Source: Natranaerobius thermophilus JW/NM-WN-LF
Lineage (GTDB): Bacteria; Bacillota; Natranaerobiia; Natranaerobiales; Natranaerobiaceae
Direction: 5' to 3'
NCBI RefSeq assembly: GCF_000020005.1
Contig: NC_010718.1
Span: 2,562,001-2,626,000, forward strand
Length of the DNA: 64,000 nucleotides
Shown here: piece after piece, positions 36,575 to 53,820 of the stretch
How the letters are laid out: every line of letters begins with the position of its first letter
Position numbering within the stretch: the stretch's first letter is position 1
The notes under the pieces: model-generated
What the model was told of the DNA's origin: nothing
Database searches by the model: none
The model's input: only the letters and a program-made list of their open reading frames with translations
Program-made: the position numbers and the translations under genes

Positions 36575-38489
36575 ATCGAGTAGGAGGTAGATAATTATTT
36601 TATCTACCGACCTCTCACACCACCGAGCAAACCGTTCGGTACACGGCGGTTCCTAGTTTACGCTTTAACTTGTCGATAATATTCCGAAAAGAATAGGAAA
36701 CCAAATCCTTTGATTACATCATTTCCAAGGGATTTGGATAAGACGGGGCTATTGGAAATTCTCCAGTAGCCCTTTCTTGTGTTTGCATATTCCCATGCTT
36801 TGTATTTATTGGCTCCAAAGAACTTGAGCATTTTAAATTTTGTTCTCACTTTCTTCCATTGTTTCCAGTAAATCATGCGAATACGCCTTCTCATCCAACT
36901 GTCAGTATTTATTAACAGATTCTTCATATCAGCTGGTTTAAAGTAGTTAACCCAACCCATAATGTATCGGCTAAGTTTCTTTGCTCTGGCTTCGTTGCTT
37001 ATTCCATAACTTCTAGATGTGAGTTCTTTTATTCTCGTTCTCATCTTTGTAACTGATTTAAGATGAACTCTTAATCTGGCTTTTCCTTTATGTCTGTAAA
37101 AGCCAAACCCAAGAAATCTTACCTTTCCTACATAGGCAACTACAGTTTTATCTTTATTTACTTTGAGAAATAGTTTATTTTCGATGAAGGGTAGTATGTT
37201 CTTCAAGGTGCGTCCGGCACTTCTTCTGCTTTTACAAAAGATTAGCAGGTCGTCCGCATAGCGGACGAATTCGTGCCCCCTTTTCTCAAGTTCTTTATCC
37301 AATTCGTGGAGCATTATGTTACTGAGGATAGGGCTAAGAGGCCCGCCCTGGGGCACGCCAACTTCTGTATCCTTATAGGTGTGTTTGATCATTACTCCTG
37401 CTCTTAGATATTTGTTGATAAGAGATATTACTCGACCGTCTTTTATTGTCTTAGATAGCACTTCTATCAATTTGCTCTGGTTTACTGTGTCAAAGTATTT
37501 CTCCAAGTCCATATCTACTACATATTTGTATCCTTCATTTATGTTTTGTTGACTTTTCTTAATTGCATCATGAGTACTGCGTCCAGGGCGAAAACCATAG
37601 CTGTTATCTGAGAATTGCTCCTCATATATTGGAGATAGTACTTGGGCTATTGCTTGTTGGATTACCCTGTCTACCACTGTAGGTATGCCTAATTTTCTTT
37701 TCTTCCCATCTTCTTTAGGTATCTCTACCCTTCTGACGGGATTAGGGCGGTATTTACCGTCCAGGACTCTTTGCCTGAGGTGGTCCCCGTTTTCTTTGAG
37801 ATATTGTAGAAGTTCATCTACTCCCATCCCATCAATCCCGTGAGAGCCTTTGTTGGATTTTATTTTCTTGAATGCTTTATTCATGTTGTCTCTATCCAAA
37901 ATTTCCTCTAGCAAATTCCCCTTCGACAAGTTTGCATTGGAGATGTTGTTTTCAGTTATCCTTAAAGAACTGTGCACTCCCGCATATCCTTCGTGTTCCG
38001 CACTATTCTTCTGCGGTGAGCCTTCTTTGCAGCTTTCGCCTGTCAGAAGTTGGCGGCACTTCATTCCTTTATTGGTAACAGTCATTTACTGATCTCCTCC
38101 TAGGTTCATCCCTTCCTTAATGATGTCGACCTCATCAAGTACTATGGAATCTGCTGACTTCTCATGACAAATCTTATTTCAACCGTGGTTCGAAGTTCAT
38201 CTTGCCACGTCCATGAGACCTCCCACGGTAAGACGATTAACTTTCATTCCATGTACCCACATCATTTACACTGGTATGTCCGTGTAGTTGATTGGACTTC
38301 GTTTTGTATTGCAAACTCATCCCATACCTTATGCCTGATGATGTTCGTGTGCCTTGGGTCGGAATTTTGCCTTAAGCTTCCTTCAGATCCCACCTCACGA
38401 TGGGCACCCTTGCTCTTGGCTAATGGTTGGTAACTACAAACCCCCATAGTGGACTTACACCACCTAGCTAATCGTCATGCATGGCGCAC
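36575..38489 (-). mobile_element. Bacterial class C group II intron
   Basis: The minus-strand 5' end reads GTGCGCC at 38489. The 3' end contains a domain V (about 36605-36650: AACCGCCGTGT...ACGGT...GGTGGTGTGAGAGG) and a domain VI hairpin (GGTAGATAA / TTATCTACC), ending in CTCCTACTCGAT at about 36575. It encodes a reverse transcriptase. It begins five bases after the gap terminator hairpin, the insertion habit of class C introns. About 1.9 kb; the last base is certain only to within one or two. Confidence 0.9.
36658..38085 (-). CDS. ltrA: Group II intron reverse transcriptase/maturase
   Basis: 475 residues. An RT domain with the YADD catalytic motif (RYADDLLIFC, near 285) and the preceding segments GIDGMGVDELL, KLGIPTVVDRVIQQA, NSYGFRPGRSTHDA and GVPQGGPLSPILSN; then the maturase domain X (ARAKKLSRYIMGWVNYFKP). 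It is shorter at the end than LtrA and I see no HNH endonuclease domain, which is normal for class C introns. Start ATG with AGGAGG at a loose 10-base spacing. It lies inside domain IV of the intron. Confidence 0.95.
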   Translation of the reverse strand: MTVTNKGMKCRQLLTGESCKEGSPQKNSAEHEGYAGVHSSLRITENNISNANLSKGNLLEEILDRDNMNKAFKKIKSNKGSHGIDGMGVDELLQYLKENGDHLRQRVLDGKYRPNPVRRVEIPKEDGKKRKLGIPTVVDRVIQQAIAQVLSPIYEEQFSDNSYGFRPGRSTHDAIKKSQQNINEGYKYVVDMDLEKYFDTVNQSKLIEVLSKTIKDGRVISLINKYLRAGVMIKHTYKDTEVGVPQGGPLSPILSNIMLHELDKELEKRGHEFVRYADDLLIFCKSRRSAGRTLKNILPFIENKLFLKVNKDKTVVAYVGKVRFLGFGFYRHKGKARLRVHLKSVTKMRTRIKELTSRSYGISNEARAKKLSRYIMGWVNYFKPADMKNLLINTDSWMRRRIRMIYWKQWKKVRTKFKMLKFFGANKYKAWEYANTRKGYWRISNSPVLSKSLGNDVIKGFGFLFFSEYYRQVKA

Positions 38490-45195: not shown

Positions 45196-45324
45196 TGCGG
45201 ATATCACCCCCATACGGGAAAACCATTAACTCCATGGCCCAAGCTTTCGTCATAATTATGCAGTCCTTATCCATGTTGACAAGTCTTGAGTACTTTTAAT
45301 GCTATAGGATTACTCATTGAGGAA

Positions 45325-45366
45325 GTCGTCACGCACTCATGTGACTTTAGTCATAAGAGGTTCACA
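45325..45366 (+). repeat. Dispersed hairpin repeat, copy 1
   Basis: About 42 bp beginning GTCGTCACGCACTC and ending AGAGGTTCACA, closely matching 48537-48577 and (reversed) 63782-63822. It lies between divergent genes. Confidence 0.75.
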
Positions 45367-47033: not shown

Positions 47034-47258
47034 TTACGACTTAGAAATCTTTAATACAAACTCTTCACCATCTTGTTCCACACTAACATCAAACCCTTTG
47101 GAATTAACAAATCTAGAAACATTTTCTTTGGCGATATTATTGTCTACAAGAACCTGCAGCTCATCAAATTCTTCTGAAAGAGCTTTTTTAGTATTAATCA
47201 CGGGCTGGGGACAAGAAAACCCTCTAGCATCTACTGTTTTCACATCTTTCTCAGCCAT
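47034..47258 (-). CDS. TusA/SirA-family sulfur carrier protein
   Basis: 74 residues with the conserved CPQP motif (ARGFSCPQPVINTKKAL), whose cysteine carries sulfur in TusA and selenium or sulfur in relatives. The remaining two-layer fold is recognisable (VLVDNNIAKENVSRF). It lies 24 bp after the YedE gene, with AGGAGG at its start. The pair TusA-YedE suggests sulfur or selenium uptake and delivery. Confidence 0.93.
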   Translation of the reverse strand: MAEKDVKTVDARGFSCPQPVINTKKALSEEFDELQVLVDNNIAKENVSRFVNSKGFDVSVEQDGEEFVLKISKS

Positions 47259-47282
47259 AACAACCGCCTCCTTTAATTTCTC

Positions 47283-48377
47283 CTATTGTCGCACTTTTGA
47301 ACTACTGCTTAAACCAATAGTCTCCATATTCATAAACGCGGTTACCAAAACAAATATAAATCCTATAATCAGTGTTATTATTCCCTCGGTGCTAACACCT
47401 TCGGGACTGGCAGCTACACCTAAATTGTGTGCCAAAGCGCCGCCGACTATCATACCAAATACGGCTACTGCTCCATCACCGTCACCGGATCCTGCCAAAA
47501 TCAACTGTCTCAAAGGACAACCACCTAATAGAATTGCACAAATACCCACAAGAGCCATACCTAAAAAGCTAAGTAAGTGATCTGTATGGGCTACAGGCTG
47601 ACCCTCAAAACCTAGTTGAAATTGCCCTGCAATCAAATTAAAGACTAATGCCACTATGAAAATGAATATAAAGCCAGTAAATAAAGTAAAGTCTCTTATT
47701 AGATATATATCCCTAATTCCGCCTGCCATACACAAACGAGAACGCTGGGCTAGAGCTCCACCAACCAGTCCCGCTATTAATGACACTACAATGGGAGCAC
47801 TCAAGGACCCAGGACCTTCCTGGCTGAAAATTAGAACTCCCGGTGCCATAATAAGTAATAATAAAAGAACTACTGAAGTTAATGGTGCAATGTATCCTTC
47901 AAAAGAACTCTGCCTGTAACTCCTGCCCAGATTGAAGCCATTTTTCAAAAACTCCGTTCCTATTATTATGCCCACAATAAAACCTAGAAAAGCCGGTAAA
48001 CTGGTTAGGTCTCCTCCTGCAAGCCTTAGCACCATTCTAAGCGGACATCCTAAGAAAATCAATGCCCCAAACATGATAAATACTGCCAATAAAAACCTAG
48101 TAGCAGTAGCTGATCCCGCTGTTGGACGAAATTCTCCATTAGCCTTAGAAATAATAAAAGCACCAAGTATTAATCCAATTACTTCCGGGCGTATGTACTG
48201 TACTACAGAAGCCTGATGCATCCCTAAACTACCAGCGATATCCCTTAAAAAACAGGCGATACAAAAACCCATGTTATCTGGATTACCTAGTAACACCAAA
48301 CCTCCACCCAAAAGGCCGAAAACTATTCCTGTAATTATAATAATCCTCTTCTCGTTAATATTAATCCCTCCTCTCAA
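47283..48377 (-). CDS. YedE/YeeE-type membrane transporter (sulfur or selenium)
   Basis: About 360 residues, roughly ten membrane helices in two halves. Repeated cysteine motifs sit in transport positions (LGCPLRMVLRLAGGD and LGGCPLRQLILAGSGDGD), as in YeeE thiosulfate transporters and YedE proteins linked with selenium. The open frame starts with TTG at 48377, but GAGGAGGG overlaps it; a non-standard ATT at 48359, six bases after that site, is the best-placed start. It precedes a TusA-type gene. Confidence 0.87.
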   Translation of the reverse strand: MRGGININEKRIIIITGIVFGLLGGGLVLLGNPDNMGFCIACFLRDIAGSLGMHQASVVQYIRPEVIGLILGAFIISKANGEFRPTAGSATATRFLLAVFIMFGALIFLGCPLRMVLRLAGGDLTSLPAFLGFIVGIIIGTEFLKNGFNLGRSYRQSSFEGYIAPLTSVVLLLLLIMAPGVLIFSQEGPGSLSAPIVVSLIAGLVGGALAQRSRLCMAGGIRDIYLIRDFTLFTGFIFIFIVALVFNLIAGQFQLGFEGQPVAHTDHLLSFLGMALVGICAILLGGCPLRQLILAGSGDGDGAVAVFGMIVGGALAHNLGVAASPEGVSTEGIITLIIGFIFVLVTAFMNMETIGLSSSSKVRQ

Positions 48378-48536
48378 AAAGTTTGTGAAAGAAATATCTT
48401 CCAGTTACTATTTTAATTGATAGCTGATTATAATTGAAATTGTGTTTATTGATACTTATTATTTAAATTATAGCTTTTGTTTATATATGAAAACATAATT
48501 AAGACCGGGTCTTTTTATACAACCCGGTTTGAACCA

Positions 48537-48577
48537 GTCGCCACGCATTCTCGTGACTTTAGTCATGAGAGGTTCAC
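48537..48577 (+). repeat. Dispersed hairpin repeat, copy 2
   Basis: GTCGCCACGCATTC followed by CTCGTGAC-TTTA-GTCATGAG (8-bp stem with one G-U) and AGGTTCAC. A separate ACCGGGT / ACCCGGT hairpin lies beside it at 48504-48528 and may terminate transcription of the short precursor gene. Confidence 0.75.
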
Positions 48578-48658: not shown

Positions 48659-48787
48659 TTACATAAATATCGCACAAAGATCAAAACATTTCTCATCACA
48701 ATCACCACAATGTTCTTCACAATTAATAAAACATTCTGTACCGTGTTCTAATTCAGTGCCTTCAACTAACATTCGCATTCTACTCAC
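48659..48787 (-). CDS. Cys-rich RiPP precursor peptide, truncated paralogue
   Basis: 42 residues from GTG 48787, preceded by GAAGGAGGTGAG. It carries the shared precursor block MLVEGTELEHGTECFINC and six cysteines (19, 23, 27, 30, 34, 38), then ends CAIFM. DNA past the stop still matches the sister genes (TTATGT-AAAGGAGCTCAA), but two bases are missing between the last shared Cys codon and TTATGT, so the usual tail is out of frame. It may be decaying or a new form. Its upstream region duplicates that of the precursor at 53486-53668. Confidence 0.75.
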   Translation of the reverse strand: MSRMRMLVEGTELEHGTECFINCEEHCGDCDEKCFDLCAIFM

Positions 48788-48821
48788 CTCCTTCTAAATT
48801 TTTAAATAAATTAAGTAAATT

Positions 48822-48915
48822 CACAATTCAATAGCTTTATATAGTTTCCTGGCTTATTTCCTGAATAGTCCAATTAAAATCCCGATTAATTCATTGTATA
48901 CACCAAATGGAACGA
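48822..48915 (-). promoter_or_regulatory. Precursor upstream region, second copy
   Basis: Closely similar to 53712-53820. On the minus strand both contain two CAGGAAA boxes exactly 12 bp apart (here 48858-48863 and 48846-48851 on the plus strand as TTCCTG) and the string TATTGAATTGTGAATTTAC. Likely a shared regulator site or promoter. Confidence 0.6.
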
Positions 48916-48957
48916 ATCACTTTAAATAATCTATCAACAATTTTAATTAAATACTAG

Positions 48958-49734
48958 TTATTTATTTCTAGCAATTTTTGTTGTACCACTAACAGTATTA
49001 ATGTCTATACTATTCTCGCCATGTCCATATTCACCTGTTATAAATCTGTCATTTTTTCTTAGATAAATCGGGAAATCACTCCTGATATTTCCTGAAACAG
49101 ATTCTTTCCGCAGTAAAAATGAAGAATTTTCGGGTAAACTTATATTTGTATTGCCAGAAGTAGTTTTTACTTTAATATTATGATCAAACAAAAAGTAATG
49201 AAGGAATACGGTTCCCGAAACTGTAGAGATATCAGTATCTCCATTAAATCTATATACTCTTATATTTCCTGAAATACTTTTTATTCTTATATTCTCATTA
49301 TTCATAGAAGAGAGTTCTAGTTTTTCGGTTATTTTGTCATCAGTAACCTCTTGATTCTTATCTCCAAAATTCACATTCCCTGATACAGTTTTAACTTCTA
49401 TATTGTTATTATAGTGATTTGGTATATATATATCTAAATTTAAGCTATCCTTTTTTTCGGAATCAACTTTCGCTTCTGGAAAACGTTTGATTTCAAGATT
49501 TAGTCTATCTTTCTTCTTTGCTAACTGCAAATCAGGGTAGTTGCTTCCATATTCTCCATAAAAATGTACTTTTGCCTGTTTTTCACTTGTAGGAATAAAG
49601 TTTATGTACGTACTAACTGTTTTAATGTCAAGAAAATTTATACCAGAAATATCAATTGTTTTTAATATATCAATTTTTTCTACAGTTTTTTTAAATTCTT
49701 CACCATTTTTATTATTAGAATAAGAATTTAACAT
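48958..49734 (-). CDS. DUF4097-like beta-repeat protein in the RiPP cluster
   Basis: 258 residues with a repeated strand-turn unit of the DUF4097/adhesin-like type: VKTVSGNVNF, IKSISGNIRV, ISTVSGTVFL, VKTTSGNTNI, KESVSGNIRS and INTVSGTTKI. No signal peptide or membrane segment, so a cytoplasmic beta-solenoid is expected. ATG with AAAGGAG upstream; 28 bp after the ABC exporter gene. Its role in peptide production is unknown; immunity or scaffold roles are guesses. Confidence 0.75.
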   Translation of the reverse strand: MLNSYSNNKNGEEFKKTVEKIDILKTIDISGINFLDIKTVSTYINFIPTSEKQAKVHFYGEYGSNYPDLQLAKKKDRLNLEIKRFPEAKVDSEKKDSLNLDIYIPNHYNNNIEVKTVSGNVNFGDKNQEVTDDKITEKLELSSMNNENIRIKSISGNIRVYRFNGDTDISTVSGTVFLHYFLFDHNIKVKTTSGNTNISLPENSSFLLRKESVSGNIRSDFPIYLRKNDRFITGEYGHGENSIDINTVSGTTKIARNK

Positions 49735-49762
49735 AACTTAATCGTCTCCTTTCACCTTAAAA

Positions 49763-51406
49763 TTAACTCACATTGTTTACCCGTGAAACATTAAGATCAA
49801 TTATTTCATCAGCAACATCAACAAAATCTTTATTGTGTGTTATCACTATAGTTATCCTGTTATGCTTTGTTTGGATTAATAGCTCTTTCAATTTTTCAAT
49901 ACTTTGAAAATCTAAAGCAGAAGTTGGTTCATCAAGCACTAGTAACTCCGGATCCTTTAATAGAGTTCGAATTAATGATATTTTTAGTTTTTCCCCGCCC
50001 GATATATTCTTTGAACCTTCCTCAATATTTGTTCGCAAACCCTCTTTAAATTTATTAGGATCAAAATTTAAATTTTCTAATAAAATTTTTAAATCTTGGT
50101 AGTTATAATTCTCTATACCAAAAGTCATATTATTTATAAGCAAGTTATTCATTAACATGGGTTCTTGTTCACTGACTCCAACGATTTTTCGACGAACATA
50201 GTACATATCTAAATTTCTTAATTCATTAGAATTATAATAGATTTGACCATCATAATAATCATTGTACAATCCCAAAACTATATTTATAAGAGTACTTTTC
50301 CCTGTTCCATTATCTCCTAGAATACAATAAATTTTCCCTTTTTCGAATTTATAATTCAAAGTTTCAATTACATAGTTTGAATTATCAAAAGAAAAAGAAA
50401 CATCATTCAATTGAATTGTGTTAATATTATCAATCTTTACTTCTCCAATAGTTTCCTTTGGTTGATATAGAACACCCATAAGCCTATCATAGGCAACCAA
50501 AGCTTTTTGATAAGAACTTCCTAATCCTAGAAAATAACTAACTCCATTTTTAATCATAGAAAAATAACTATTAATAATTGTAAACTCTCCAATTGTTAAG
50601 TTTCCATTCATTATTTCCAGACCACCAAAAAAGAAAACTACCACTCGTGCCAAAACTTTAGTAAATGAATCACTATTTGAAAAAAGCAAAGATAATTTCG
50701 TGTATTTAATAAATGTCAAAAGCATCGTTTTAAAACTTTGTTCAAGTTGATTATGTGCTTCTCTAAAAGTAGCTGTCAATTTAATTAATTTAGTTTTTTG
50801 TAGAAATTGATTCATTACAGAAAAAAATTTATTCTGTTTTTCCTTCAATTCGTAATTTTTATTATATAAAGGTTTTCGAAATAAATAATATAAACCAAGA
50901 TATAATGGAATAAGTGGCAATAGTATCAAAGTTAATCTTACATTAATAGTCAGAGAAATATAAATTAAAACAGTTACAGTCAAAAAATTCTTAATAATGC
51001 TTACAAAATTATCTAAAACGAAATTAATTACTTCTTTACTATCATTATTGATCCTTTGATTTAAATACGCACTATCTTTATCTTCAAAATATCTTACAGG
51101 TAATTTCACTAAATGTTTTAATACGTAAAAATTTAAATCAATCATAGATTTTGTTTGGATGGTTCTATGCAAATAATTTTTAACAAAAGATGCTATGATA
51201 TTAAAGAGACCTACTGCTAATATGATTAGTGTAAAATATTTGATTTCCTGTCTTGTAGGTCCTTGATTTAATATATCTACGTAATAACCTGTTAAATAAG
51301 GTAAAACAATAGAAACAACCCATGTGATAAGACTCATCATAGCGAAAACAAACAACGAAATTTTATATTTTAATAAGTGTTCTTGAGCTAATTTTACAAT
51401 TTTCAT
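49763..51406 (-). CDS. ABC exporter (fused permease-ATPase) in the RiPP cluster
   Basis: 547 residues from ATG 51406 (GGGGAGTG upstream; the frame runs on to 51442 without a ribosome site). An N-terminal membrane domain with five or six helices (about 1-310) and a C-terminal ATPase with Walker A (LGDNGTGKST), signature (ISGGEKLKIS) and Walker B (LLVLDEPTSALD). No C39 protease domain, so leader removal, if any, must be done elsewhere. Probably exports the modified peptides; homodimer expected. Confidence 0.88.
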   Translation of the reverse strand: MKIVKLAQEHLLKYKISLFVFAMMSLITWVVSIVLPYLTGYYVDILNQGPTRQEIKYFTLIILAVGLFNIIASFVKNYLHRTIQTKSMIDLNFYVLKHLVKLPVRYFEDKDSAYLNQRINNDSKEVINFVLDNFVSIIKNFLTVTVLIYISLTINVRLTLILLPLIPLYLGLYYLFRKPLYNKNYELKEKQNKFFSVMNQFLQKTKLIKLTATFREAHNQLEQSFKTMLLTFIKYTKLSLLFSNSDSFTKVLARVVVFFFGGLEIMNGNLTIGEFTIINSYFSMIKNGVSYFLGLGSSYQKALVAYDRLMGVLYQPKETIGEVKIDNINTIQLNDVSFSFDNSNYVIETLNYKFEKGKIYCILGDNGTGKSTLINIVLGLYNDYYDGQIYYNSNELRNLDMYYVRRKIVGVSEQEPMLMNNLLINNMTFGIENYNYQDLKILLENLNFDPNKFKEGLRTNIEEGSKNISGGEKLKISLIRTLLKDPELLVLDEPTSALDFQSIEKLKELLIQTKHNRITIVITHNKDFVDVADEIIDLNVSRVNNVS

Positions 51407-51556
51407 AAGTTTCACTCCCCTATTGTCAAGAACCAAGTCCAAATTTCAAAATACTATAATTATATTTTGACTTTATTAAAGAATGATAGACCTAGATTTA
51501 GCAAGTATACACTTTAAAAGTAATACCTGCTAAACCTAGGTTAATTACATGGTAAA

Positions 51557-52900
51557 TCAAATTTTAGCTTTTTTAACTTTTTCCTCTTGTTGTGATTTTA
51601 CTTTCTGATTATACATATCAATAGCAATTTCTTTAATGTAATTAGAGAGTTCATACTTATAAGAAATACATCTATCTGTTATTCCATCAATTCTTCTTCT
51701 TGGACAACCTCCCATGCACAAGGGAAGAAATTTACACTCTACACATTCTGTATCTTCTGTAGGATCATACATCATATATCTAAAAAGTGTTTGCACTGTT
51801 GCAGGATCTTCTTCAGTAACATGTGCTATTTTATACTCTTTTCTACCAACATCGTTCCAGCACTTATAAACATCTCCTTCAGGATCAACTACTATTGCAC
51901 TATCGTTATCTGCACAACACACATTTGATCTTCGTCTGGGATATCTGTGCCTTATATTGGGAGCAAAACCAAATTCCACTAGTTTTTTGTAAAATTCATA
52001 TTCAATTTTGGCAAAATAGCGGGAATCCAAAATGTTATCCACGTCATAACAGTCGTTTGTCGGCTCCACATAACCTGGATAAACTGATACAGTATTTTCT
52101 AAACTATGAGATTTTAATACAGTTAACACTTCTTGAATTCTTTCAACATTTTCTTTATCTACATTAACTCTTACAGAAACATTTGGTAGAATGTCTTTAC
52201 AATCACACAAGTTTTGAACTATTTTGGAAAATGTAGGTTGTCCACCTCTAGCAGGTCTCCGTTTATCATGAATATCTTTCGGACCATCCAGTGTAATTTG
52301 TATAGAACTGATATTTAGTTGGTTTAATTTATCCACAGTTTCTCTATTTAAATTATAACCATTAGTTATCAGAGAACTGCTAAATTTTTTTCCTTTTTCA
52401 TTACAAAGTTCTATAGCTTGCTTGTTAATATTTTCTATTACATCTAATGCTAAGAGTGGTTCCCCTCCATGCCATCCAATAGATAAGTCGCGGATATGGT
52501 CTAATTTTTGTTTTATATAATTTATAATAGATTGTTGAATGTCTTCAGACATATACCCGTGCTGAACTCCCTGTTCGTAACAATAAATGCATTCAAAATC
52601 ACACTCTAATGTAGGTACCAAAGTAAATCCAAATCTTTTTGTTGAATATCTATGTTTTAATAATGAATAACGGATTAAGTCAATCTCATTAAGAGCATTT
52701 TCGAGTATGAATCCGTTCTCTTCTAATGTTTTATATAATTCTGTGTCGTCAATCTGTAAACCGTTTTCTACGTAATTTTTATATTTTTCATATTCTTTTG
52801 TGTCCATAATTGCCAAGGCATTCGTCCTGGCATTATAGGCAATCAGTTCATCAGTGTTATCCGGTGAATCAAAGAAAAAATTATATTTAGAAGCCTGCAC
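51557..52900 (-). CDS. Radical SAM/SPASM peptide maturase
   Basis: 447 residues from GTG 52900, placed eight bases after AAAGGAGG; an ATG at 52921 is in frame but lies upstream of that site. The N-terminal ~90 residues may recognise the precursor. The radical SAM motif CDFECIYC gives cysteines at 100, 104 and 107, with GWHGGEPLLA and SSIQITLDGP downstream. The SPASM end has cysteines in VCCADND, YKCWNDV, ECVECKFLPLCMGGC and RCISYK for auxiliary clusters. Follows three precursor genes. Confidence 0.93.
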   Translation of the reverse strand: MQASKYNFFFDSPDNTDELIAYNARTNALAIMDTKEYEKYKNYVENGLQIDDTELYKTLEENGFILENALNEIDLIRYSLLKHRYSTKRFGFTLVPTLECDFECIYCYEQGVQHGYMSEDIQQSIINYIKQKLDHIRDLSIGWHGGEPLLALDVIENINKQAIELCNEKGKKFSSSLITNGYNLNRETVDKLNQLNISSIQITLDGPKDIHDKRRPARGGQPTFSKIVQNLCDCKDILPNVSVRVNVDKENVERIQEVLTVLKSHSLENTVSVYPGYVEPTNDCYDVDNILDSRYFAKIEYEFYKKLVEFGFAPNIRHRYPRRRSNVCCADNDSAIVVDPEGDVYKCWNDVGRKEYKIAHVTEEDPATVQTLFRYMMYDPTEDTECVECKFLPLCMGGCPRRRIDGITDRCISYKYELSNYIKEIAIDMYNQKVKSQQEEKVKKAKI

Positions 52901-52929
52901 ATTCAAAACCTCCTTTGACATAGATTTTT

Positions 52930-53003
52930 AATTAAAAGAAAAAGTAGGGTATCCTCTACTTTGATTGACATAACGATAATTTCATTGAAAAGAGGATACC
53001 CTA
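52930..53003 (-). terminator. Attenuator between precursors and maturase
   Basis: On the minus strand TAGGGTATCCTCT (53003-52991) pairs exactly with AGAGGATACCCTA (52957-52945) across a 33-nt loop and is followed by CTTTTTCTTTTAATT. It lies in the gap between the last tandem precursor and the maturase, so it should end many transcripts there. Confidence 0.75.
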
Positions 53004-53024
53004 TATACCATTTCAAACAACTTA

Positions 53025-53192
53025 TTAGTCATCGTAAGGAGAAACTTGAGCTGCTTTACATAATTCCCCGACACATTGCTCACCACATTCATTACATTGT
53101 TCACATCCTTCGTACTGGCAACCACAGTTTATAAAACATTCTGTATCGTGTTCTAATTCTGTGCCTTCAACTAACATTTGCATTTTACTCAC
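53025..53192 (-). CDS. Cys-rich RiPP precursor peptide
   Basis: 55 residues from GTG 53192 (purine-rich GAGAGGGGGTGAG upstream). N-terminal block VSKMQMLVEGTELEHDTEC then FINCGCQYEGC and a core with eight cysteines in total (19, 23, 25, 30, 33, 36, 40, 45), ending SPYDD. Nearest precursor to the maturase, separated by the attenuator hairpin. Too short for most gene callers. Which part is removed after modification is not evident. Confidence 0.85.
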   Translation of the reverse strand: MSKMQMLVEGTELEHDTECFINCGCQYEGCEQCNECGEQCVGELCKAAQVSPYDD

Positions 53193-53288
53193 CCCCTCTC
53201 TTTAAATTTTTACCACTTAGCTAATTCTAGACTGTAACGCTACCTTTCATTGAAAAGAGGAATACCCTATATACCACTTAAATAATTA

Positions 53289-53456
53289 TTAGTCGTCGGT
53301 AGGAGAAATTTGAGCTCCTCCACATAATTGCCCAACACATTGCTCACTACATTCATCACATTGTTCACAAGTATGGTATTGACACTCACAATTTATAAAA
53401 CATTCTGTATCGTGTTCTAATTCCGTGCCTTCAACTAACATTTGCATTCTACTCAT
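53289..53456 (-). CDS. Cys-rich RiPP precursor peptide
   Basis: 55 residues, ATG at 53456 with AAGGGGG upstream; because it begins ATG-AGT-AGA it confirms the GTG starts used for its sisters. Same N-terminal block and eight cysteines at the same positions, but with ECQYHTCEQCDEC in the core and tail ISPTDD. Middle of the tandem, 96 bp before the next precursor; that gap carries a lone copy of half of the attenuator stem (GGGTATTCCTCT). Confidence 0.85.
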   Translation of the reverse strand: MSRMQMLVEGTELEHDTECFINCECQYHTCEQCDECSEQCVGQLCGGAQISPTDD

Positions 53457-53485
53457 CCCCCTTAAAATTTTAAAATAATCTTAAT

Positions 53486-53668
53486 TTAATCATCCCAAGG
53501 AGCCGTGTTCATTCCTCCACAATATTCTCCACCACATCCTTCCCCAACACATTGCTCACTACATTTGTAACAATGATCACAACCTTCGTACTGACACCCA
53601 CAATTTATAAAACATTCTGTATCGTGTTCTAATTCCGTGCCTTCAATTAACATTTGCATTCTACTCAC
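53486..53668 (-). CDS. Cys-rich RiPP precursor peptide
   Basis: 60 residues from GTG 53668 (AAGGAGGTGAG upstream). N-terminal block with Ile instead of Val (MLIEGTELEH), nine cysteines (19, 23, 25, 30, 33, 36, 40, 45, 50), and a glycine-rich end GEYCGG before the tail NTAPWDD. First gene of the cluster, with the promoter-like region directly upstream and 29 bp to the next precursor. Confidence 0.87.
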   Translation of the reverse strand: MSRMQMLIEGTELEHDTECFINCGCQYEGCDHCYKCSEQCVGEGCGGEYCGGMNTAPWDD

Positions 53669-53711
53669 CTCCTTTTTGTTTATTTTTTATTTAATTTTTT
53701 AACTATTTTGT

Positions 53712-53820
53712 AAATTCACAATTCAATAACTTAATATCTTTTCCTGTCTTATTTCCTGTTTAGTTCAATTAAACTCTCGAATAGTCCATTATGGACTCCG
53801 AATGGAACAAACACTTTAAA
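53712..53820 (-). promoter_or_regulatory. Precursor-operon upstream region with tandem CAGGAAA boxes
   Basis: On the minus strand two ACAGGAAA boxes lie 12 bp apart (plus-strand TTCCTGT at 53741-53747 and 53753-53759), followed by a TATTGAATTGTGAATTTAC string. The region is duplicated in front of the fourth precursor (48822-48915). One-turn-spaced direct repeats suggest an activator or two-component regulator; no such regulator is in the cluster. Confidence 0.6.

What the first reader, a model, noticed from the sequence alone, without database searches (positions are those of the whole stretch)
48659..53668. Cys-rich RiPP cluster with three tandem precursors plus an orphan copy
Seen: four short genes share a near-identical first 23 residues (pattern S-[RK]-M-[QR]-M-L-[VI]-EGTELEH-[DG]-TECFINC) and variable 6-9 cysteine cores; three are directly followed by a radical SAM/SPASM gene and a one-chain ABC exporter. 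Known: SPASM enzymes acting on Cys-rich peptides commonly install thioether links. Inference: a sactipeptide- or ranthipeptide-like product. I do not recognise this exact precursor leader.
Basis: partly seen in the sequence, partly recalled or inferred. Interest (0 to 1): 0.85.

Follow-up and report, generated by a model that had tools for sequence, protein, structure and literature searches.

The report
Cys-rich RiPP cluster, Clo7bot-like
A small operon in an anaerobic bacterium makes short cysteine-rich peptides, a radical enzyme that probably ties them into rings, and a pump to export them; it is a new, low-GC, patchily distributed branch of a known but chemically uncharacterised peptide family.

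Summary
Four minus-strand peptides share a near-identical leader block. Three lie in tandem before a radical SAM/SPASM gene and an ABC exporter; a DUF4097 gene and the fourth, orphan peptide follow. Three corrections. (1) "6-9 Cys" is the whole-peptide count; cores after residue 23 have 4-7. (2) The ribosome-binding sites favour the ATG three codons in, so the leader is about 15 residues. (3) The orphan carries a duplicated promoter region but is frameshifted, so it lacks the conserved Cys-free tail. The maturase fits no curated family; its best model is Clo7bot (316 bits, cut-off 600). It has a predicted N-terminal RRE-type fold and resembles the ranthipeptide maturase CteB. It forms a supported six-member clade with maturases from other genomes. 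The closest relative shares maturase (49%), ABC (56%) and recognisable precursors. A Clo7bot locus has the same gene types in the same order. Many relatives' precursors begin M-x-[WYFM]-[LIV]-[IVFLK]-x-[PGA] and carry an early C-x3-C. So this is a new variant of the Clo7bot-like Cys-rich RiPP kind. Thioether (ranthipeptide-like) crosslinking is likely but not shown: PapB's C-x3-[DE] spacing is essentially absent.

The parts
53486..53668 (-). Precursor P1, 60 aa from GTG; 57 aa from the likelier ATG at 53659; 9 Cys
53289..53456 (-). Precursor P2, 55 aa (52 aa from ATG at 53447); 8 Cys
53025..53192 (-). Precursor P3, 55 aa (52 aa from ATG at 53183); 8 Cys
52946..53002 (-). Hairpin followed by a U-rich tract just after P3; likely leaky terminator that lowers maturase relative to precursor expression (inference)
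   Evidence: z = -3.8, 1 of 200 shuffles folds as well
51557..52921 (-). Radical SAM/SPASM maturase, 454 aa: N-terminal RRE-like domain (about 8-93), C107-x3-C111-x2-C114, SPASM Cys 335, 354, 393, 396, 402, 406, 418, plus invariant C291
51490..51541 (-). Long near-perfect hairpin between maturase and ABC gene, single copy in the genome; possible RNA processing or stability element
   Evidence: z = -6.9
49763..51442 (-). ABC exporter, membrane + ATPase domains in one chain, no peptidase domain detected; true start probably the ATG 12 codons in
48958..49734 (-). DUF4097 / LiaG-like toastrack protein, possible envelope-stress or self-protection partner
   Evidence: a DUF4097-annotated gene holds the same place in a Clo7bot locus
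48659..48787 (-). Orphan precursor P4, 42 aa (39 from ATG at 48778), 6 Cys; frameshifted relative to P1-P3 and without the Cys-free tail
53692..53820 (-). Upstream region of P1, homologous to that of P4 (probable promoter/5' region)
   Evidence: 80% over 107 nt; score 131; best of 1000 shuffles 35
48795..48926 (-). Upstream region of P4, homologous to that of P1

Best explanation
This is a RiPP operon of the Clo7bot-like Cys-rich kind, in a new subfamily. Proposed steps: (1) P1-P3 are transcribed together, with a leaky terminator keeping the maturase lower (inferred from the hairpin). (2) The short leader (M-Q-M-L-[IV]-E-G...) docks as a beta strand on the maturase's N-terminal RRE (fold predicted; docking inferred from CteB). 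(3) The radical SAM cluster makes a 5'-deoxyadenosyl radical, and with the two SPASM clusters links several Cys sulfurs to carbons of nearby residues, starting at or after the C-x3-C pair (inferred; thioether of ranthipeptide type favoured). (4) The ABC protein exports the product. It has no peptidase domain and no dedicated protease was seen between the genes, so the leader is removed by a general protease or retained. (5) DUF4097 probably helps the producer's envelope tolerate or sense the product (weak inference).
For: Radical SAM and SPASM signatures above curated cut-offs (PF04055 62 vs 29.5; TIGR04085 64 vs 27); all rSAM/SPASM Cys kept in 20 relatives except the last in one. RRE-like b-b-b-H-H-(b)-H fold in the model; full-length fold match to CteB 5why, E 5e-17; CteB also the best PDB sequence match, 2e-22. 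An independent cluster in G056 shares maturase 49%, ABC 56% and precursors (P3 vs G056a SW 67, 1 of 2000 Cys-fixed shuffles as good). Clo7bot locus has the same gene types in order: peptides, maturase, [HExxH protein], ABC, DUF4097. Leader motif in 21 of 33 Cys-rich small ORFs beside maturases vs 3 of 86 elsewhere.
Against: The chemistry is untested. No curated equivalog model is passed. C-x3-[DE] (PapB rule) essentially absent, and no single donor-acceptor spacing is constant. AF2 model is only moderate (mean pLDDT 72; cluster loops < 50), from 6 sequences. The leader motif was defined from the same sequences, and paralogs are not independent. The two DUF4097 proteins do not align with each other, and the Clo7bot one matches a toastrack model only below cut-off.
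Confidence: 0.68

Rival explanations
1. Same RiPP architecture, but the maturase makes alpha-carbon (sactipeptide) thioethers.
For: Cys-rich substrate, SPASM enzyme; SkfB is a distant PDB match (6e-6).
Against: No sactipeptide maturase model among the 25 best; PapB (146 bits) ranks above SCIFF (98.5), and CteB far above SkfB by sequence and fold.
Confidence: 0.12
2. Same RiPP architecture, but the enzyme does not make thioethers: Cys stay free for disulfides or metal, and other residues are altered (e.g. cyclopropane, C-C links, epimers).
For: TigE (8vpo), by my recollection not a thioether enzyme, is the second-best fold match; CxxC/CxC spacing (CEQC, CGC) could bind metal.
Against: Cys is the constant feature of precursors across relatives, and no repeated non-Cys motif such as TigE's substrates have; nearest sequence relatives with known chemistry are thioether enzymes.
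Confidence: 0.15
3. The peptides are unmodified metal-binding (metallothionein-like) proteins, and the SPASM/ABC genes are chance neighbours.
For: High Cys content, CxxC pairs.
Against: Linkage of Cys-rich small ORFs, maturase and a clade-specific ABC recurs in G056, G062 and G312, and a comparable set of gene types in a Clo7bot locus; shared leader motif; the precursor is not found apart from a maturase.
Confidence: 0.04
4. The cluster is decaying and makes no product in this strain.
For: Orphan P4 is frameshifted; cluster has the lowest GC of all 5-kb stretches (29.6% vs mean 37.6%) and is sporadic; in G062 the homologous maturase is split by a transposase insertion.
Against: P1-P3, maturase, ABC and DUF4097 are intact with good ribosome-binding sites; all catalytic Cys kept.
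Confidence: 0.1

Closest known systems
Clo7bot peptide / CtpM system (TIGR04333 / TIGR04334), e.g. Paraclostridium bifermentans plasmid NZ_CP079738
   Same: Gene types and order (Cys-rich peptides, SPASM maturase, ABC, DUF4097); maturase 35% identical over 438 residues; short leader beginning M-x-aromatic-hydrophobic; early C-x3-C
   Different: Maturase 316 bits vs 600 cut-off and separate clade; precursors do not match TIGR04333 and are no more similar than Cys-fixed shuffles; ABC only 27%; Clo7bot locus has an extra HExxH protein
TIGR04463 family radical SAM/SPASM RiPP maturase
   Same: Second-best family model, matched over nearly the full length
   Different: 271 bits vs 525 cut-off; not a member
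Ranthipeptide maturases PapB (NF047865) and CteB (TIGR03974, PDB 5wgg/5why)
   Same: RRE-rSAM-SPASM architecture, Cys-rich substrates; CteB best structure match
   Different: 146 vs 340 and 98.5 vs 425 bits; precursors lack the C-x3-[DE] repeat of PapA (PMC9413430) and do not match SCIFF
   Same: Same maturase clade (98/98 support for six sequences; G062 not in the tree, its pieces 44-48% identical) and related ABC 39-56% where present; Cys-rich precursors
   Different: No DUF4097 homologue found; helix-turn-helix regulator divergent from the maturase in G056 and G062; three maturase copies in G312; no precursor or related ABC found in the G353 stretch

Membership tests
RiPP (generic, radical SAM-dependent) | Short precursor genes with conserved leader and variable core next to a modifying enzyme | tested here: met
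   linkage recurs in other genomes
RiPP (generic, radical SAM-dependent) | Radical SAM CX3CX2C and SPASM Cys set | tested here: met
   PF04055 62 bits vs 29.5, TIGR04085 64 vs 27; the Pfam SPASM model alone is below cut-off (13.6 vs 21.5)
RiPP (generic, radical SAM-dependent) | RRE domain | tested here: inconclusive
   predicted b-b-b-H-H-(b)-H fold and full-length match to CteB, moderate confidence; no RRE family model matched
RiPP (generic, radical SAM-dependent) | Modified peptide product | not testable with these tools
   needs mass spectrometry
Clo7bot (TIGR04333/TIGR04334) | Maturase passes TIGR04334 cut-off (600 bits) | tested here: not met
   316 bits; separate clade
Clo7bot (TIGR04333/TIGR04334) | Precursor matches the Clo7bot peptide model | tested here: not met
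   no NCBIfam match at E <= 1 for P2 or P4, only irrelevant matches for P1 and P3
TIGR04463 | Maturase passes 525 bits | tested here: not met
   271 bits
PapB ranthipeptide family (NF047865) | Maturase passes 340 bits | tested here: not met
   146 bits
PapB ranthipeptide family (NF047865) | Repeated C-x3-[DE] motifs in the precursor | tested here: not met
   0, 1, 0, 1 occurrences in P1-P4
SCIFF (TIGR03974) | Maturase passes 425 bits | tested here: not met
   98.5 bits
Ranthipeptide (chemical class) | Thioether to a non-alpha carbon | not testable with these tools
   needs MS/NMR
Sactipeptide (chemical class) | Thioether to an alpha carbon | not testable with these tools
   needs MS/NMR

The most novel reading that the evidence does not exclude
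The superclade (this subfamily, Clo7bot, TIGR04463-like) is one class of ultra-short-leader, Cys-rich RiPPs recognised through M-x-aromatic-hydrophobic-hydrophobic-x-[PG], making a polycyclic crosslink pattern not described for sacti- or ranthipeptides, possibly a signal or surface factor rather than an antibiotic.
Probability: 0.2. Interest if true: 0.7.

Novelty: new variant of a known kind. Interest (0 to 1): 0.45.

Why it matters
No paper in the held library mentions Clo7bot, TIGR04334, TIGR04463 or geopeptide, so the chemistry of this large group appears undocumented there. This cluster is compact, comes from a genome that matches Natranaerobius thermophilus in size (recalled, not tested), and has three natural substrates plus a truncated one, which makes it a practical test case for the crosslink chemistry and the short-leader recognition rule.

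Tried and rejected
A sigma-H-like promoter (AGGAAA-N12-14-TTGAATT) shared by P1 and P4: only 9 sites in the genome, but four other sites that I looked at were not upstream of a recognisable early-sporulation gene, and the pattern was chosen after the fact; dropped. Genome-contig and viral-contig scans with the two-sequence maturase alignment used weak patterns and found only distant relatives or none. Precursor HMM hits in other genomes at E 1e-5 to 1e-2 mostly cover the Cys-rich half only and were judged compositional, by coverage and E-value rather than by inspecting neighbourhoods. PADLOC matches (viperin, MADS) are generic rSAM/ATPase similarity. True Clo7bot above cut-off was absent in 398 sampled genomes, so the DUF4097 linkage could not be extended beyond one species.
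Full report
Observation. Transcription runs from high to low coordinates: P1 (53668-53486), P2 (53456-53289), P3 (53192-53025), radical SAM/SPASM (52921-51557), ABC exporter (51442-49763), DUF4097 (49734-48958), orphan P4 (48787-48659). Gaps are 29, 96, 103, 114, 28 and 170 nt. Only these four copies exist in the genome. The genome's length (3,191,453 bases in 3 contigs, chromosome 3,165,557) equals what I remember for Natranaerobius thermophilus JW/NM-WN-LF; that identification rests on memory.

Corrections to the reading. Cys totals are 9, 8, 8 and 6, of which two lie inside the 23-residue block. The GTG start overlaps its own Shine-Dalgarno in P1, P3 and P4 (AGGAGGTGAGTAGAATG in P1 and P4), and in P2 the upstream ATG abuts a GGGGG; the ATG three codons later has proper spacing in all four, giving MQMLIEGTELEHDTEC. 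That start also aligns with the relative in G056, MTYLIEG. P4 is not simply another variable core. About 130 nt upstream of P1 and P4 are homologous (80% over 107 nt; local score 131 against a best of 35 in 1000 shuffles), but P4's 3' part is frameshifted: the DNA that encodes ELCKAAQ in P3 is present in P4 and read in another frame as YLCKGAQLL. P4 therefore keeps leader and six Cys but lacks the conserved Cys-free tail. It may be a degenerating copy or a tailless substrate; the leader differences do not decide.

The enzyme. NCBIfam models give TIGR04334 (Clo7bot) 316 bits with cut-off 600, TIGR04463 271/525, CefB 238/600, geopeptide 200/400, PapB 146/340, SCIFF 98.5/425. It therefore belongs to none of these as curated. 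All Cys of the radical SAM and SPASM motifs are present; C107, C111, C114, C335, C354, C393, C396, C402, C406 and an extra C291 are invariant in 20 relatives, C418 nearly so. The AlphaFold model (mean pLDDT 72, from six sequences) has an N-terminal b-b-b-H-H-(b)-H domain, the topology of an RRE. Foldseek puts CteB first (5why, E 5e-17) and TigE second (8vpo, 1e-16); by sequence CteB is the best PDB match (2e-22). In CteB the leader lies as a beta strand on the RRE (PMC8326336), which is the docking mode I infer here.

Relatives. In whole-genome searches the closest maturase is in G056 (49%), beside an ABC protein 56% identical to ours and two precursors, MTYLIEGNSMEELCTFTC...GGQVCYPAQVMPLAE. 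P3 and that peptide score 67 by Smith-Waterman, reached by 1 of 2000 shuffles that keep the Cys in place; the tail AQVxP is shared. A tree places our maturase with G056 (100/99) and these with G312 (three copies) and G353 (98/98), apart from the Clo7bot maturase. G312 and G062 have related ABC proteins (39-41%). In G062 the maturase reading frame is split by transposase genes. The Paraclostridium Clo7bot locus has seven annotated Clo7bot peptides plus two further Cys-rich ORFs, ctpM, an HExxH protein, ABC and DUF4097: the same kinds of genes in the same order. Relatives within the family and order of our organism (G001, G002) lack the maturase, and the cluster has the lowest GC of all 5-kb stretches of the window (29.6% against a mean of 37.6%, sd 2.7). 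This fits acquisition by transfer, though loss in relatives is not excluded.

A shared leader rule. Precursors beside maturases of this wider group start M-x-[WYFM]-[LIV]-[IVFLK]-x-[PGA] and reach the first Cys within roughly 13-25 residues, often as C-x3-C (MKFIKKP...YCFLSC, MNWVVSP...GCPWLC, MKYLING...NCHLGC, MRFIFNA...ECTRYC). The motif is in 21 of 33 Cys-rich small ORFs on the maturase strand within 2.5 kb, against 3 of 86 elsewhere. It was defined from these sequences and paralogs are not independent; counted by locus it is in about 10 of 16.

Mechanism. Shown: gene set, motifs, recurrent linkage, hairpins. Inferred: RRE-leader docking, Cys crosslinking, export, and DUF4097 as a protective or sensing partner. 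A hairpin followed by a U-rich tract after P3 (z -3.8) would give more precursor than enzyme; a second, very stable hairpin lies between maturase and ABC (z -6.9; single copy in the genome). I found no peptidase domain in the ABC protein and no protease between the genes. The thioether type stays open. PapB links Cys to Asp/Glu in C-x3-[DE] (PMC9413430), which our precursors lack (0, 1, 0, 1 occurrences), although PapB tolerates n = 0-6 and most of our Cys have an acidic residue within seven positions downstream. On sequence and fold the ranthipeptide type is favoured over sactipeptide.

Function. Antimicrobial, signalling or surface roles cannot be told apart here. PMC8326336 notes that the wide spread of SCIFF argues against an antimicrobial role and cites work linking SCIFF ranthipeptides to quorum sensing in clostridia. 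Our cluster is sporadic, which fits a bacteriocin-like role better. G056 and G062 carry a helix-turn-helix regulator (weak TPR signal in one) divergent from the maturase, which would fit regulated production.

Verdict. Real, interpretable, and a new variant of a known kind: a subfamily of Clo7bot-like Cys-rich radical SAM RiPPs whose chemistry I found undocumented in the held literature.

Noticed in passing
window 45317-45365 and 48529-48577 (+): Two copies of a 49-nt sequence (GTGACTTTAGTCAT[AG]AGAGGTTCAC), seven matches in the genome, one of them (856481) about 140 nt after a TnpB-type gene domain; probably solo IS200/IS605-type ends or omega-RNA remnants, one just downstream of orphan P4.
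   Followed up: partly
window 38109-38404 (-): Group II intron domains (Rfam D1D4-3 and D1D4-1 matches).
   Followed up: no
window 47034-48377 (-): SirA/TusA-like small protein beside a YeeE/YedE-like membrane protein (by eye from ORF translations); apparently a sulfur-transport pair.
   Followed up: no
L013:8959-10476: Desulfoscipio maturase relative ends in its own Cys-rich tail (KKRCCTIVCVRCTSLSCTLGQCKPVCKAVKSN), as if a substrate-like segment were fused to the enzyme; the Paraclostridium CtpM also ends in GCEKGCCSCG.
   Followed up: no
L012:8980-14412: Four consecutive related SPASM maturase genes in a Desulfobacterales contig, with one short precursor upstream (MEWIVEPEDETQ...).
   Followed up: no
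L032:6964-10122: Maturase homologue of the same group split by a two-ORF transposase insertion in G062.
   Followed up: partly
L010:7301-7945: HExxH protein with weak Peptidase_MA_2/M1 similarity between Clo7bot maturase and ABC; a candidate leader peptidase missing from our cluster.
   Followed up: no
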